From Capsaspora owczarzaki ATCC 30864 (taxonomy: Eukaryota > Opisthokonta > Filasterea), in contig NW_011887292.1 of NCBI RefSeq assembly GCF_000151315.2, positions 661,534 to 725,533 on the forward strand: DNA of 64,000 nt, written 5' to 3'. Under the pieces are notes generated by a model. The model worked only from the letters and a program-made list of their open reading frames with translations, did no database searches and was not told where the DNA came from. Made by a program: the position numbers and the translations under genes. This document shows, piece by piece, positions 53,966-60,681 of the stretch; the first letter of the stretch is position 1, and the number at the start of each line of letters is the position of its first letter.

Positions 53966-55562
53966 CTATTGTCGTGTCTTGAGATTGTTCACAAGCCAGT
54001 CCATGGCTTCTTCAAGACCTTCGCCCTTCACGGCCGATGTCTTGAAAATTGAATATGTGCGGTTTTTGAGCGCAGACAATCCGAGCGCCTCCGACACCTG
54101 TGCCGGTGGGAGCGCGCCAGGCATGTCTTGCTTGTTGGCAAACACCAGCAGCATGGCGTCCTTCAGCTCGTCCTCCTGTGAGCATGGGCATGATGGTGGT
54201 AAGAGGAGTGTCCGGACATGTACGTGACCACGCTTGCCAACAAAGTACAAAAACAAACCATACACACCTCGAGCATGGAAACGAGCTCAGACTTCGACAT
54301 GGACATTCGGTCCCGATCAGAGCTGTCCACAACGTAAATAACGGCGTCCGTGTTTGCGTAGTAGCATCGCCAGTAAGGGCTAGAGAGAGACAGAGCAGAA
54401 GCGTGGGTGACCAAGAAGACAAGTGAGAGACGTTCGTGCTTGTCAATTAGACAAAAGCAAACAACTAAAGTGGACTGCTTACCGGATGCTTGTTTGACCT
54501 GGAGAAAAAACAAATCAAACCGAAAGAGGCCAGACGAAAGAAACGGGAGCGAAAAACAAAAAGTGAAATCAGTCACTGTTCAAGCCCGCAAAACGGTGAT
54601 ACAACAAGCCACCACTTACCTCCGAGATCCCAGACTATCGTGCCCGCGTTCAATTGCGTTCGAGAAGGACGGGTGCAAATGCCAAGAGGATGAGTAACAC
54701 GCCAACAAAACCAGCTGCGACACGCTGCACGACGCCGAAAACGTACCTTGGAATTTCAAATTCTTATATGTGACGGTCTCGACATTGAAGCCAATTGCTG
54801 TAGTGGGCGTATCGAATCAACGTCAGCAAACGCATTGATATCAACAATGCAAGCAGGTCGTAAACAAAAAAAAAAAAAAAAAACTCACTGGGAATTGTTG
54901 TCACAACTTCGCCGACTTGCAATCTGGCCTCGCACAGTACACAACAGTGCTTAGTGAGCTATTTGACTATTTGACCTCATGGTCCCCATCATCGGGTGGT
55001 GGTGGTTACGCACCGGTACAAAATGGTCGTCTTGCCGGCGCCGTCGAGGCCGAGGATCAAAATGCGGACCTCCTTGTCGCTCCACAGCTTGGAGAACAGA
55101 CCAGAGAACCAGTTGCCTGTGCCACAAAGATGAATCATGGTGTGGTGGCGGAATGAGTGTCGAGCTAGGGGAGCAAGGCAGAGAGGCAAATTTGCAGAGA
55201 TCCCCGACTCGGACCGATTCAACCAAGTCCCTCAGTGCACGCAACGACACCCCCCCTTCGGCACGGTGCGACACGATTGCGATTCGAGAGCGATCGCCGC
55301 AGCATCTGCGCGCGGTGGGAGTGGTTGGGTGGCGGGCTGCAGGTCGAGCGAGGCTTCAGCGACAACAGCGACCTCGCCCCTGCCGGTCCGTCCGTCCGTT
55401 CGCCGCCTACTTTGTTCAGCGAGAGCGATGCAAGATGAAGCGAGCAGCCTCGCAATGCAGACACAACGGAACGCGGCGGCCACCCAACACAGCCTGCTTC
55501 TCCATCGGCAGCCACGTCCTCAGTCAAAAATTGAAAAAAAAAAAAAAAAAAACTCTACCCAT
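53966..55562 (-). CDS. ARL1: ADP-ribosylation factor-like GTPase ARL1
   Basis: ARL1 is a trans-Golgi GTPase that recruits GRIP-domain golgins. Eight coding exons: 55562-55559 (ATGG only), 55116-55014, 54923-54889, 54797-54747, 54634-54620 (15 nt), 54498-54483 (16 nt), 54379-54268 and 54175-53966; phases agree, 181 residues, exactly the human length. The first split exon gives MGNWFSGLF with Gly2 for myristoylation; reading from the next ATG (55138) would replace this by MIHLCGTG and lose it. Motifs: GLDGAGKTT (P-loop), TIGFNVETV (switch 1), WDLGGQTSIRPYWRCYY (switch 2, ARL1 wording, coded across three tiny exons), NKQD, and C-terminal [10 protein letters not shown]. The GTPase is complete. 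Divergent from the receptor gene at 56683. Confidence 0.95.
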
Positions 55563-56682
55563 TGTGAAGTTTGTGTTAGAAAAAAAAAAAAAAAAAAGAG
55601 TGGAGTTTGGCGTTCGACAACACGAAGCTTGAGGATCGACATGCCAGCAAATACAGTCGAACCTGCAGCAAATATCGTTTGCTTGTCGGTTCTGAGAGAG
55701 GGGTTGAGAATAGCTCGAGAAACAGCGAGAAAGTGCGCTTTTCATTCGGTCGGATGTTTGGACAGCTCGTTGTGCCTGAGTGCAGGGTGCTTTTCGCCTC
55801 AAACGCACAGCAAAAATTCTCCTTATATGGATTGATTGCTGAACTGCTTGGTAAAGTTAATGCGGCAGTTGCAAGCAAATTGTACTCAATGGGAAACATT
55901 TTAACCCAATGTTCCACTTGCCACAAAGGATGCAAAACGTCATTCACTTTGCGTTACCAAGACACCGTTGTCATAATTCGATAGTACTCAGCCCAGGCAT
56001 TCACCAATTTTAATGCCAGGACTCTGACTCAAGTACTTCCGGCTGGCGAAGGCGCAGCAGGTGGTTGTCAGGCGAATTTCGAGAATTCGATTTGTCTTTG
56101 CGCACTATTGTTTGAATCAACCAACCCGAACCTGCTCAAAACTCGATTTCCGGTCTGGTGTGCCAGAACCGAGAGTCGAGTGCTGGCGCACGTCGCTTGT
56201 GATTGGTGGTTTCGCGAGTTTTGTGGGCATCTACGTTTTATTTTGTTTTTCTTTTGGCGTTGGCACTGCACACTGTGCATCCATCAACTGCCATTACCTT
56301 GGCCAACAGCATTCAAGACCCAGCCCGCCACATCCAAAGTTCAACACCCTGTGACGCGACTCGTGCCGCAATCAATGGTTCCACGCTGCGAAAATTTCAC
56401 GTCGATTTTCATTTTGTTTTGTTTTTGTTTGTATTTTTTTTTTTTTTATGAATGGTGACAGTTGCGACAGTTGCGACACCACTCCACATCACCGTTGAAA
56501 ACAAGACAAATCAAGGATAACGGCAAGACACGGAAATCACGAACGCTTCAACTCCAGCCTCGCATTTGGCATACGTGGACGATGACAAAAGTGTCCATGG
56601 CCAGATTGGTTAACGATTTGTACTTGCTCCAACAGTCCTGTTTTGTTTTGCTCTTTTTTTTTTTTTTTTTTTTCCTTTTTTG
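55563..56682. other. Divergent intergenic region, ARL1 / 7TM receptor
   Basis: 1.1 kb with A-runs near 55578-55596 and T-runs at 56430-56448 and 56651-56673, the last directly before the receptor start. Both strands have open frames of about 120 codons at 55576-55984, but neither resembles a known protein or shows splice support. Confidence 0.45.
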
Positions 56683-59600
56683 ATGCCTTCCAGAATGGCG
56701 CACCGCATCCCTGTCACGCTGTGGAAGAGCTTGATGCTGGTGGCGCTGTGTGTTGTGGTGGCCAAGGACTTTGCTGGAGCTTCAGCACTGCGGGTCGACG
56801 CTGCGCAGCCGAACTGCTTGTCTTCGACTCCTGGCGAAGGGGTGACTGTCGTTGTCTCTGGCGACTTTGGCCCATCTGCGCCAGTGCCTGCAAGCAACCT
56901 CATGTGCCTGCTCGGGTCGTCGGCGCAATCCGCCTTGGCTGGCACCTGGATCAGCAGCACGCGGGTGCAGTGCGATCTTCCTGCTGCGAACGCCATGCCT
57001 GCATCTGTCGACTTTGTGCTGCGCGATTACACCTATCAGCTGCTCCCCGCAAAGTACATGCAACTGCGCATCACCCTCGACAGCAACGCTACTCGCGTCC
57101 CTGGCTGGCTCCCCGTCTTCACTCCGCCGGCGACAAGTCTCTCTGGGCTCGTGCCTGATCGGTATTTTTTTTTTTTTTTTTTGATTCCTTGTTTTGTTTA
57201 CGTCCTTGTTGGGCATTTGCGCTCGTCCTCGCTATGTTTCCGGCTATTGCACCTCTCGCTCGCGCACGCGCTCTCTCTCTCTCATCGAGATCTTGGTTAC
57301 GTTGAAGTGCGACTGAGTGGGGAGTGACGGTACGTCGAAGCAGATTCCAAAAACAACAAAAAAAAAAAAACCCAACAACATCGAACAAAAACAGGAGACG
57401 AAAACCCGCAAAAACAAACAAAAAAACCAAAAACCCACAACAAATACAAACGCGAAAAGGTGCGAAAAAAAGGCGCGCGTGAGGGTCTCTGCCGCTCGCA
57501 GCACTACCAAAATGCTTGCCAATCCAACTGCCAGTAGAAAAAACCAGACATCTTTGCATCTCTGCTTTCGGACTTGAGAGCGTGCAGGTGATCTGGCGAC
57601 TTGTTTGGTTTATTTTTTGGGACCTTACTGGGGTCACCCAAGACGAGTTTATTTGTCGTTTCCCTGTTTCTTGTGACTCATTCAGTCTGATTTTGTGATT
57701 GTTTTTTTTGTGGCAATTTTGCTCAACAACAGTGGTCCAATCGGTGGCAACACGCACGTCACCGTGTCAAGTGTTGGGTAAAGATTGATTGAATTTGGAA
57801 GAGAACAGCAAAATCGAAAATCCCTCACTTTCTCTGCTCTTCCCCTATTGTTTTTCAGCGCCATTGACAACCGCGATCTTCGATGCAAGTTTGGCACGGT
57901 CGAGACAAATGGCAACTTTATCGACGCTACCTCGTACCATTGCACGTCTGCCACTGTCGGCTCGCCTGGACTCGTGGATGTTGAACTCAAAACCGAGCCC
58001 ACACAAATGTCCATGGGCGTCTACCTGGATGGCGTTGACGATTATGGAGTTGCGCCCATCCCTGTGGCCGAGCTGAGTCTCAACATGACGTTTGAGACGT
58101 GGTGGCGTCCCGCCGAAATCCGTGGCCGCCTCCAGGCGCTCATCCAGAGTTGCGTGCCTGGCGAAACGCCCGAGACGAACTGCGAATTCTGGATCACGGT
58201 TGCTCGCCCAAGTGCAACGGATCCCAACTTGAGCGCGTTCGGCTTTGGCCACGAGTTTTACAACGGACAAAACCAAGAGGACAACTACTACGTCCTGCCC
58301 CTTTCGGCTCAAAGCCAGTGGCAGCACGTGTCGGTCGTTCGTGAAATCTGGGATCCAACGCTGGCGGTCTGCTCAACGGCTGGTTGCCCGGCGATTGGCG
58401 AATACCGTGTGTACTGGAACGGCGAGCTTGCCGGAGAGCCGTACCAATTCACCGTCAACACGATGAATGGCACGACCAACACGTATGTTGGTGCGTTGTA
58501 CACCACATCCTTCTTCAAGGGCGTGATTGACGATGTGCGCATTGTCGACTACCCCAAGACGCAGGCACAAGTCCAACAGGGTATGCACGATGTCTACACC
58601 GGATACGAACCCGGCACCATTGTCTCGTGGGACTTTGAGCCAAACCATCAAGTCTTTTCAGTCACAAGCTACCAGAGCGATATGGTCACGCCGCATCAGT
58701 ACACAAACTTTATCACCACCCCTTCCAACCCAACCGTCCCGTACCAGCTGAACATGGGAGGCGGCACTGCCCTTTTTGCCGGCCAGATTGTCCAGGCGGT
58801 TGCCTTTGCAGAGTTCCCTGCGGCCCCGTCTGGTCTGCAATTCTTGTACTACACCCCAGAGACAATCACCGACTTTGCTCCCCAACACGGCCGCACCTCG
58901 GGTGGTACCGTTGTCACCGTCTATGGCACCGGATTTTTGAACTCGACCTACCTCTCATGTCGCTTTGGTTTGGCCGATCCGACTCCCGCCAACTTTATCA
59001 ACTCGACAACATTGACGTGCATTTCGCCCGCGTACTCGATCTGCTCCCAAGGCTCGGAAAGCCTGGTCATTCAATTGTTTGTCTCCAACAACAACCAGCA
59101 GTTTGTTGTGGCAGCAGCAAACTTCACCTACTACCAGCCCGCCACAATTCAGAGCGTGTCGCCCACCCAGGCTCCTCTCACCAGCACCTTTCCCGTGACG
59201 ATCTTTGGCAGTGGATTCATCTCGACTCCCGAGTTCCGCTGCCTTTTTGGCAGTCACGCGTCCGTGCCATTGTCCATTACCCCCACGCAGGTTGTCTGCT
59301 ACCCGCCACCCGCCGATTCCGGTGAAATTGTGGTCGTTTCGGTGACCATGGAAGGACAGACCTCGCCCGCTTCGCAGGTCATCTTTACTCTGTTCGATCA
59401 GTGGTCTGTTGTGGAAACCACAGCGGTCGGCATTGCCATCTTTATGGGCATTTGCTTTGCCATCGTCGTCTTTGTTCATATCTGGCTGTTTGTGCATCGC
59501 AATGACAAGGCTGTCAAGGCCTCAGCGCCTCTGTTTGGCCAATTCATTTTGTTTGGCGCGTACCTTGGCTTTGGCGCGGTTTCTGCCTTCTTCGCCACTC

Positions 59601-60681
59601 CCACCGACGCATCATGCACGGTGGGGATCTGGTTTGTTTTCCTGTCGTTTTCCTTCATGTTTGCGAGTCTCTTTATCAAGAACTGGCGCATTCAGCACAT
59701 CTTCAATGTGAGTTTCTCGAGCGCACTGTTTGTGTTGCTGGTGTCACTCAGATGTGTTGCCGTCCATGACATGGCTCACTTTTCTCGTGTCGCCTGCAGA
59801 ACAAGAAGCTCGACAAAGCAGCGTCGAAAAACCTGACCGACCTTCGTCTCTCTATCGCCTTGTTCTTTGTGGTTGGTATCATGATCATTATTCTTGCAGT
59901 CTGGACGGGGACGGCCGACGACAAGGTGCAGATCGACGATGAGGGTTTTGCGTCCTGCTATGTCAACCCCACTTTCCAAGGCATTCTGTTTGCCTACATG
60001 GGCGTCATGATGCTGTTTGGCATTATTTTGGCCATCCGCACCCGCAACATCAAGGAGGATGCTTTCAATGAAAGCAGGCTCATTTCGGTTGCCATTTACA
60101 ACGTCTCCTTTGTGACTATCATTATGATTCCGCTGGTGACCTTTACGACCGATGTTCGGGCGCTCCTGGTGATGAAGGTATGGTTTCTCGAAGGCGTTTG
60201 CAACAGACAAAACAAATCAAACTCAGCCTTTTGGTTTTTTTTTCCCCCCTTTTTGAACAACCCGCGCAGAGTGTCGGCATTCTTTTCGCCGTCATGGTCA
60301 CTGTCGGCTTGTTGTTCTTCCCCAAGATTTGGCAAGCAGCAATTCACCAGCGTCGAGTGTAAGGCTATTTTGGATTCTTCATCCCAACCGCTCGCGAATC
60401 CTGATTTGTGTCATTTTGTATTCTCTTGATCCTTGCACAGCGCTCGCATGCGAAATTCCAGCGATCAAAACACGCCTGGGCCCACCAACTCCAACACCAA
60501 CGCAGCATCTGCGCGAGCCGGAGGAATCAATTCGCCCAGGGGTTCGCAGAACAACGAGGGGTCGCAGACTCGTCAAACTCACTCGCACGTCTCTCATCCC
60601 TCATCAGACGAAGCGGCTGTGGACATGATGCAACTCCCGATGAGCGAGTTCAAATCTCCTTCAGAGCAGCTGCGCGCTTGA
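56683..60681 (+). CDS. Class C (GABA-B-like) seven-helix receptor with IPT/TIG and LamG-like ectodomain
   Basis: Six exons: 56683-57161, 57733-57777, 57859-59707, 59800-60177, 60270-60358 and 60441-60681, in phase, 1,026 residues. A signal peptide (about 10-35, LWKSLMLVALCVVVA) leads to the ectodomain. Parts in order: an IPT-like unit with GEGVTVVVSGDFGP (about 45-170); RGPIGGNTHVTVSSVG; a concanavalin/LamG-like domain (about 225-415, YLDGVDDYGVAP, MTFETWWRP, GVIDDVRIVDYP); two IPT/TIG units (from about 509, ITDFAPQHGRTSGGTVVTVYGTGF and about 604, IQSVSPTQAPLTS). Seven helices run from about 690 to 940 in class C style: FMFASLFIKNWRIQHIFNNKKL at TM3/loop 2, GILFAYMGVMMLFGIILAIRTRNIK, FNESRLISVAIYNV and VGLLFFPKIWQ, closest to GABA-B receptors. 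No Venus-flytrap domain is present. The cytoplasmic tail is Ser/Asn/Gln-rich. ATG at 56695 (MAHRIP) is an alternative start. Confidence 0.87.

What the first reader, a model, noticed from the sequence alone, without database searches (positions are those of the whole stretch)
56683..60681. GABA-B-like class C receptor with an IPT + LamG-like ectodomain and no Venus-flytrap
The seven helices and loop wording match GABA-B/class C receptors, yet the ligand-binding Venus-flytrap is replaced by a concanavalin/LamG-like domain between IPT/TIG units. Such a layout suggests recognition of a carbohydrate, matrix or a partner cell protein. Domains are seen in sequence; the ligand idea is inference. It could be an adhesion-type sensor in a unicellular relative of animals.
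Basis: partly seen in the sequence, partly recalled or inferred. Interest (0 to 1): 0.78.

Follow-up and report, generated by a model that had tools for sequence, protein, structure and literature searches.

The report
Capsaspora GABA-B-like receptor with LamG-IPT ectodomain
A single-celled relative of animals carries a receptor whose membrane part resembles the animal GABA-B receptor but whose outer part is a chain of matrix- or cell-recognition-type domains instead of the usual amino-acid-binding trap; the gene looks intact, but a receptor of this kind from this species was already reported in 2012.

Summary
The window is Capsaspora owczarzaki and the gene is CAOG_00213. Pfam finds 7tm_3 (171.9 bits), IPT/TIG (103.3) and Laminin_G_3 (45.3), all above cut-off, and no Venus flytrap. 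One exon holds LamG, two IPTs and the first helices, so ectodomain and 7TM belong together. The 7TM is nearest solved GABA-B2 and falls on the GABA-B side of a tree that lacks mGlu (96/92). Two tandem paralogues share the layout; dN/dS is below 1. Novelty is limited: Krishnan et al. 2012 named a TIG-bearing glutamate-family receptor of this species, probably this gene or a paralogue. Not in the texts I saw: LamG between IPTs, the three-gene family, faster divergence outwards, gene conversion of one exon. A pattern I first drew, flytraps only on the other side of the tree, failed when checked: a fourth flytrap-type receptor lies on the GABA-B side. Most likely a G-protein-coupled sensor of matrix, glycan or a partner cell; the ligand is inference.

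The parts
56695..56784 (+). Signal peptide region (annotated start is Met 5 of the 1026-aa model; an upstream in-frame Met is at 56683)
   Evidence: CAOG_00213 starts here; hydrophobic stretch aa 7-38; the end of the peptide is my estimate
56827..57027 (+). Distal N-terminal domain, probably a degenerate IPT (exon 1; aa 49-115)
   Evidence: Pfam TIG 14.0 bits, below the 20.9 cut-off; profile-profile match to TIG2/TIG3, probability 82.9, E 9.2e-6, 53 columns; no credible PDB match
57139..58000 (+). IPT/TIG 1 (aa 153-222), spread over exons 1-3 and interrupted by introns 57162-57732 and 57778-57858
   Evidence: Pfam TIG 26.8 bits over a cut-off of 20.9
58037..58576 (+). Laminin_G_3 / concanavalin-like domain (aa 235-414)
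   Evidence: Pfam 45.3 bits in the whole protein, 48.9 alone, cut-off 27.6; six-frame genome search
58862..59131 (+). IPT/TIG 2 (aa 510-599)
   Evidence: Pfam TIG 49.1 bits, also TIG_plexin 31.1
59144..59368 (+). IPT/TIG 3 (aa 604-678), directly before TM1
   Evidence: Pfam TIG 50.5 bits
59414..60326 (+). Class C seven-helix domain (7tm_3, aa 694-936), exons 3-5, interrupted by introns 59708-59799 and 60178-60269
   Evidence: Pfam 171.9 bits spliced; hydropathy; best PDB match GABA-B2
60327..60681 (+). Cytoplasmic tail and stop, polar, no domain above cut-off (intron 60359-60440)
57782..59836 (+). Uninterrupted open frame around exon 3 (57859-59707) joining LamG, TIG2, TIG3 and the start of the 7TM
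   Evidence: the same 684-aa frame

Best explanation
[quoted passage not shown] Its 7TM is GABA-B-like; its ectodomain is a rod of IPT-like / IPT / LamG / IPT / IPT domains. Most likely mechanism: the rod projects from the cell; its outer part (distal IPT-like domain and/or a LamG face) binds a matrix component, a glycan or a protein on another cell; binding is passed through the membrane-proximal IPT pair to a 7TM, probably a dimer, that activates a G protein. Shown here: gene structure, domains, no detectable flytrap, GABA-B-likeness by sequence, conservation among three paralogues. Inferred: surface location, dimerisation, coupling and the class of ligand.
For: Domain scores. GABA-B2 is the best solved relative, 79.9 bits against 53.2 for the best mGlu; five control 7TMs of the same genome pick differing partners: GPR179, GPR158, GABA-B2 for the C6 LamG receptor, GABA-B1 for a C19 receptor. 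In the alignment the TM3 Cys (CTV), the K of FIKNWRI, FNES in loop 3 and the PK of TM7 stand opposite the same or similar GABA-B2 residues; that these matter for folding or signalling in class C is recalled. dN/dS, window against the two paralogues: 7TM 0.09-0.12, TIG2+3 0.10-0.12, LamG 0.24-0.27, TIG1 0.34-0.46, aa 1-150 0.36-0.43; protein identity 78, 66, 55, 43-46, 37-43%: a conserved signalling core with a faster outer part. G-alpha genes are present (26 matching pieces). LamG is listed among adhesion-GPCR ectodomains, whose ligands include matrix and membrane proteins (PMC12716839 passages); plexin-A4 is a PDB match of aa 484-659.
Against: No ligand, expression or location data. LamG and IPT folds can be plain spacers. 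pS is 0.59-0.75, near saturation, so dN/dS is rough. The loop-2 Cys (C844) is present but not set against GABA-B2's in the printed alignment. On the tree the nearest row outside the family by path is C8:442323, which lies on the other side of the GABA-B branch. The AlphaFold2 model was unusable (mean pLDDT 32.2, two-sequence alignment), so no binding face could be examined. The LamG's best PDB relative is weak (22 bits, an S-layer-domain protein).
Confidence: 0.5

Rival explanations
1. It is the signalling partner in a class C heterodimer, as GABA-B2 is: another class C subunit binds the ligand, and the IPT-LamG rod serves mainly for pairing and spacing.
For: The 7TM is nearest GABA-B2, the coupling subunit in animals (the role is recalled). 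The genome has 29 class C loci by my count of the 34 pieces; four have a flytrap-type match, and one of these, C8:1337534, is on the same side of the tree.
Against: The outermost part diverges fastest between paralogues, unexpected for a mere spacer. No pairing data.
Confidence: 0.2
2. It senses a soluble ligand (peptide, polysaccharide, serum component) through the LamG or the distal IPT-like domain: a chemical receptor rather than a contact receptor.
For: Class C receptors of animals bind soluble ligands (PMC12716839). Concanavalin-like folds can bind sugars (recalled).
Against: Nothing specific; no binding residues could be tested without a usable model.
Confidence: 0.2
3. The ectodomain is not a ligand sensor; the 7TM is constitutively active or mechanosensitive, as recalled for flytrap-less animal orphans such as GPR156, and the rod only tethers.
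For: No flytrap; GPR156 is a solved class C receptor with short chains (298-598 residues).
Against: GPR156 is not among the 60 of 81 matches listed for the window's 7TM; a roughly 650-aa multi-domain ectodomain under purifying selection is more than a tether needs.
Confidence: 0.08
4. Wrong gene model: an adhesion-protein gene joined in silico to a class C GPCR.
For: Only the usual worry with predicted genes; no RNA was seen.
Against: LamG, IPT2, IPT3 and the first helices lie in one open frame; two paralogues keep exon sizes 45/1849/378/89 and the domain order; NCBI's model is the same.
Confidence: 0.02

Closest known systems
TIG-bearing glutamate-family receptor of C. owczarzaki, EFW40850.1 (Krishnan et al. 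2012, PMC3251606)
   Same: Same species, class C 7TM with a TIG domain. Of 9 TIG matches in the genome, 6 lie beside a 7tm_3 match, in the window gene and the two C10 paralogues, so EFW40850.1 is very probably one of these three.
   Different: The section read names only TIG, not LamG. I could not tell which gene it is (one search found no mapping). Figure 5 and the supplements were not seen.
Pentaxin-bearing glutamate-family receptor EFW47134.1 (same paper)
   Same: Class C with a concanavalin/LamG-like domain, same species. The genome's only Pentaxin match lies upstream of the 7tm_3 match at C8:442323 on the same strand, so that gene is probably EFW47134.1.
   Different: No TIG match there; its 7TM falls on the other side of the tree.
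Animal GABA-B receptors
   Same: 7TM sequence: best PDB matches; no NCD3G in either (here; PMC12716839 for GABA-B).
   Different: GABA-B has a Venus flytrap; here IPT-LamG-IPT-IPT.
Adhesion GPCRs with LamG or TIG
   Same: Rod of adhesion-type domains on a 7TM (LamG in adhesion GPCRs; TIG in two Salpingoeca ones, PMC3251606 passages).
   Different: 7TM is class C; no GAIN or GPS found.
Plexin / MET-type receptors
   Same: Tandem IPT domains; plexin-A4 matches aa 484-659 in the PDB.
   Different: No Sema or PSI domain listed; seven helices instead of one.
GPR156
   Same: GABA-B-related class C receptor without a flytrap (recalled).
   Different: Almost no ectodomain (recalled); not in the listed matches of the window's 7TM.

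Membership tests
Class C (glutamate family) GPCR | 7tm_3 seven-helix domain above the Pfam cut-off | tested here: met
   171.9 bits over 33.5, profile 5-251 of 251; seven hydrophobic segments besides the signal peptide, TM2 and TM6 as overlapping stretches
GABA-B receptor | 7TM closest to GABA-B among animal class C types | tested here: met
   Best PDB match GABA-B2, 79.9 bits against 53.2 mGlu4; on the GABA-B side of a 27-row tree, branch 96/92, but without any mGlu/CaSR row and not as direct sister of GABA-B
GABA-B receptor | Venus flytrap (periplasmic-binding fold) ectodomain | tested here: not met
   None; no ANF_receptor, Peripla_BP_6 or Bmp match at this locus
GABA-B receptor | Binds GABA / obligate heterodimer | not testable with these tools
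   Needs experiment
mGlu / CaSR / T1R receptor | Flytrap plus NCD3G | tested here: not met
   Neither. The genome-wide NCD3G search found none, but its controls were silent too, so it proves little
mGlyR/GPR158/179 | Cache ectodomain | tested here: not met
   No Cache match; 7TM on the other side of the tree from GPR158/179
Adhesion GPCR | GAIN/GPS and an adhesion-type 7TM | tested here: not met
   Not among the 5 families listed; the 7TM is 7tm_3; none of the genome's 10 GPS matches is at this locus
Laminin_G_3 domain | Pfam match above cut-off over the whole profile | tested here: met
   48.9 bits over 27.6, profile 3-151 of 151; fold not confirmed (model unusable)
IPT/TIG domains | Pfam TIG above cut-off | tested here: met
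   Three pieces above 20.9 (26.8, 49.1, 50.5); the fourth, distal, only 14.0

The most novel reading that the evidence does not exclude
A GABA-B-type 7TM module is a general transducer that swaps outer parts: on the GABA-B side of the Capsaspora tree the same 7TM type carries IPT-LamG, LamG with Ephrin-like repeats, repeat-rich beta-helix-like chains and, in one long-branch row, a Peripla_BP_6 flytrap. The IPT-LamG family would be a small set of contact or self-recognition receptors with a fast-evolving distal head and a stalk exon kept uniform by gene conversion, acting in aggregation or host contact.
Probability: 0.12. Interest if true: 0.6.

Novelty: new member of a known kind. Interest (0 to 1): 0.35.

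Why it matters
Class C receptors are usually thought of as flytrap receptors for small molecules. Here a GABA-B-like 7TM sits under an adhesion-style ectodomain in a close relative of animals. If that ectodomain controls G-protein output, the class C 7TM is a general transducer that very different outer domains can drive, and the fixed pairing seen in animals becomes a datable event. The 2025 survey already argues that the animal combinations arose on the animal stem (PMC12716839, section 9 read); this family is a concrete, testable example.

Tried and rejected
With ANF_receptor alone I saw three flytrap class C genes, C4, C14 and C16, all on that side. Peripla_BP_6 adds a fourth, in the same 2176-aa frame as the 7tm_3 at C8:1337534, and that row lies on the GABA-B side, on the longest branch of the tree (2.13). 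Because of this I lowered the novel case from 0.15 to 0.12, its interest from 0.65 to 0.6, and the overall interest from 0.38 to 0.35. Bmp gave no match in the genome. Most other class C ectodomains were not examined.

Structure prediction of the full protein with a two-sequence alignment gave mean pLDDT 32.2; no fold search was run on it, and the second job was not used.

Same layout elsewhere: whole protein (22 proteins from 7996 scored candidates, a capped list; the two Capsaspora proteins carry 7tm_3, TIG and LamG, the other 20 TIG without 7tm_3), 7TM part (4 proteins, two Capsaspora and two cnidarian with ANF and 7tm_3), LamG part (4 proteins, two Capsaspora and two of 1772 and 1762 aa without 7tm_3). 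These searches need shared 5-residue words, so absence in other filastereans is weakly supported.

A missed upstream flytrap exon: three frames within 55134-56455 gave only sub-threshold matches. NCBIfam gave nothing above cut-off for P0001 or P0002.

Literature: searches. Seen: PMC12716839 outline, passages and section 9; PMC3251606 passages and section 20; PMC10445921, PMC4302439 and PMC3870316 passages only. De Mendoza et al. 2014 is not held. Figures and supplements were not seen. For this gene or layout, 'Laminin_G_3' with '7tm_3', 'CAOG_00213' and 'class C GPCR' with 'laminin G' and 'Venus flytrap' found no paper; one search found two that look off-topic by title. led to the 2012 paper.

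Tree: 22 of 29 class C loci used. Dropped: C1:3126112 and C1:3130132 (7TM stretches the same as C1:3121974 bar one extra first residue in the latter), C3:1323912 and C2:972454 (stops/introns), C2:305038 and C15:31787 (partial), C17:60628 (34 bits). The C14 and C8:442323 rows were joined by me across an intron by eye. No mGlu row was available.
Full report
What it is. The window is part of the Capsaspora owczarzaki ATCC 30864 genome: the spliced protein equals CAOG_00213, and the window lies in contig 1 of a 27.46-Mb assembly. Six exons give 1026 aa; NCBI's protein starts at the second Met of this model (56695) and has 1022 aa.

Domains. Pfam on the spliced protein lists 7tm_3 171.9 bits, TIG 103.3 bits in four stretches, TIG_plexin 45.5, Laminin_G_3 45.3 and one sub-threshold match; nothing of the flytrap, Cache, NCD3G, GAIN or GPS kind. 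Scanned in pieces: distal domain TIG 14.0 bits (below cut-off), TIG1 26.8, LamG 48.9, TIG2 49.1, TIG3 50.5. A profile of the distal domain from the three paralogues matches a profile of TIG2/TIG3 with probability 82.9, E 9.2e-6, over 53 columns, but finds nothing credible in the PDB. I read the order as signal peptide, IPT-like, IPT, LamG, IPT, IPT, 7TM, polar tail. The stretch between LamG and IPT2 (aa about 415-500) has no assignment.

One gene. The 684-aa open frame 57782-59836 contains LamG, IPT2, IPT3 and about the first 100 positions of 7tm_3. Separate transcripts for ectodomain and 7TM would have to split an exon.

7TM type. Against solved structures the 7TM stretch scores 79.9 bits with GABA-B2, 68.2 with GABA-B1 and 53.2 with mGlu4. 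Five other class C 7TMs of the same genome were controls: C4 (flytrap) prefers GPR179, 83.9; C2:1021292 GPR158, 52.8; C16 (flytrap) GPR158, 64.6, with GABA-B2 close at 62.1; C6 (two LamG) GABA-B2, 66.6; C19:14633 GABA-B1, 99. So the preference discriminates. A tree of 27 rows (22 Capsaspora, two cnidarian GABA-B-like, fragments of GABA-B2, GPR158 and GPR179) puts 11 rows on one side of a branch with support 96/92: the window gene, its two paralogues, the C19 pair, C3:484103, C6:826831, C8:1337534, the two cnidarian rows and GABA-B2; the other 16, with GPR158/179 and the flytrap genes C4, C14 and C16, are opposite. The window trio is not GABA-B's direct sister: it joins a group of 7 rows that holds GABA-B (82/82), and inside that group the fork next to GABA-B is weak (87/53). 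By path length the nearest row outside the family is C8:442323, on the other side. Further cautions: no mGlu or CaSR row, long branches, midpoint root.

Family in the genome. The 7tm_3 search gave 34 pieces, which I count as 29 loci. ANF_receptor gave 5 matches, 3 beside a 7tm_3 match: C14, C4, C16; Krishnan et al. 2012 also report ANF in 3 sequences of this species. Peripla_BP_6 adds C8:1337534, in the same open frame as its 7tm_3. So at least four class C genes have a flytrap-type match, three on the GPR158/179 side and one, on a very long branch, on the GABA-B side; my first idea of a clean split does not hold. TIG gave 9 matches, 6 in the window gene and the C10 pair, 3 not near a 7tm_3 match. 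LamG gave 15; those beside a 7tm_3 match on the same strand are the window gene, the C10 pair, C6 (two) and C8:442323; for C6 and C8 this rests on neighbouring frames, not on a spliced model. Two class C genes read as one frame (L073, L074) have long repeat-rich ectodomains that look like beta-helices by eye, with only sub-threshold Chlam_PMP matches.

Paralogues. The C10 pair encode the same layout; exons 2-5 have the same sizes in all three genes, 45, 1849, 378 and 89 bases. Identity of the window protein to c1/c2: aa 1-150 36.7/42.5%, TIG1 45.8/43.4%, LamG 55.1/55.1%, aa 420-500 54.3/54.3%, TIG2+3 66.0/66.0%, 7TM 77.6/78.4%. dN/dS: 0.43/0.36, 0.34/0.46, 0.24/0.27, not defined/0.13, 0.12/0.10, 0.09/0.12 (dS near saturation). 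Between the two C10 copies exon 3 is 93-100% identical in 100-column windows, exon 4 about 70-94%, exon 1 and the first introns about 34-64%: the mark of gene conversion over exon 3, or of an assembly slip, which I cannot exclude. So the stalk, LamG included, and the first helices were made alike while the distal head was not.

How it works. Best reading: a G-protein-coupled sensor of matrix, glycan or a partner cell. Shown: architecture, intact frame, purifying selection, GABA-B-like 7TM. Inferred: surface display, dimer, coupling, ligand class. Sequence alone settles none of the functional rivals. An AlphaFold2 run failed (pLDDT 32.2).

What is known. Krishnan et al. 2012 (section 20 read) state that TIG occurs in CASP_EFW40850.1, Pentaxin in CASP_EFW47134.1 and 5_nucleotid_C in CASP_EFW44378.1 of C. 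owczarzaki, domains not reported before in the glutamate family. The first is very probably one of the three TIG genes here; the second is probably the C8:442323 gene, near the genome's only Pentaxin match. Garcia De Las Bayonas and King 2025 (section 9 read) report that non-metazoan glutamate receptors have diverse ectodomains and that filasterean 7TMs branch near mGlu, mGlyR or GABA-B receptors or apart. I therefore file this as a new member of a known kind. Not in the texts I saw: the LamG between IPTs, the three-gene family, the divergence gradient and the gene conversion.

Noticed in passing
L044 (G000:C10:543501-553500): Two tandem paralogues of the window gene; exon 3 is 93-100% identical between them while exon 1 and the first introns are about 34-64% identical, suggesting gene conversion of one exon.
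   Followed up: partly
L044:4213-4392: CAOG_009932 (P0002) ends at a stop inside what looks like intron 5 (donor GTGAGT); its paralogue and the window gene splice here to a tail exon, so the annotated end may be wrong.
   Followed up: partly
G000:C8:1337534-1341142: Class C frame of 2176 aa with Peripla_BP_6 matches (94.4 bits jointly for two pieces and a weaker third piece nearer the 7TM); a flytrap receptor on the GABA-B side of the tree and without an ANF_receptor match.
   Followed up: partly
L073 and L074: Class C receptors with long repeat-rich, beta-helix-looking ectodomains and 7TMs on the GABA-B side; only sub-threshold Chlam_PMP matches.
   Followed up: partly
L046 (G000:C6:822001-829000): Class C locus with two LamG matches and Ephrin_rec_like repeats in neighbouring frames, 7TM nearest GABA-B2.
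   Followed up: partly
L045 (G000:C8:441801-447800): Class C locus with LamG and Pentaxin matches and cadherin-like-looking repeats, probably the Pentaxin receptor EFW47134.1 of Krishnan et al. 2012.
   Followed up: partly
window 53966-55228, minus strand: Exons of an Arf-family small GTPase gene directly upstream, divergently oriented.
   Followed up: no
G000:C1:3121974-3135111: Four class C loci in tandem with almost identical 7TMs.
   Followed up: no
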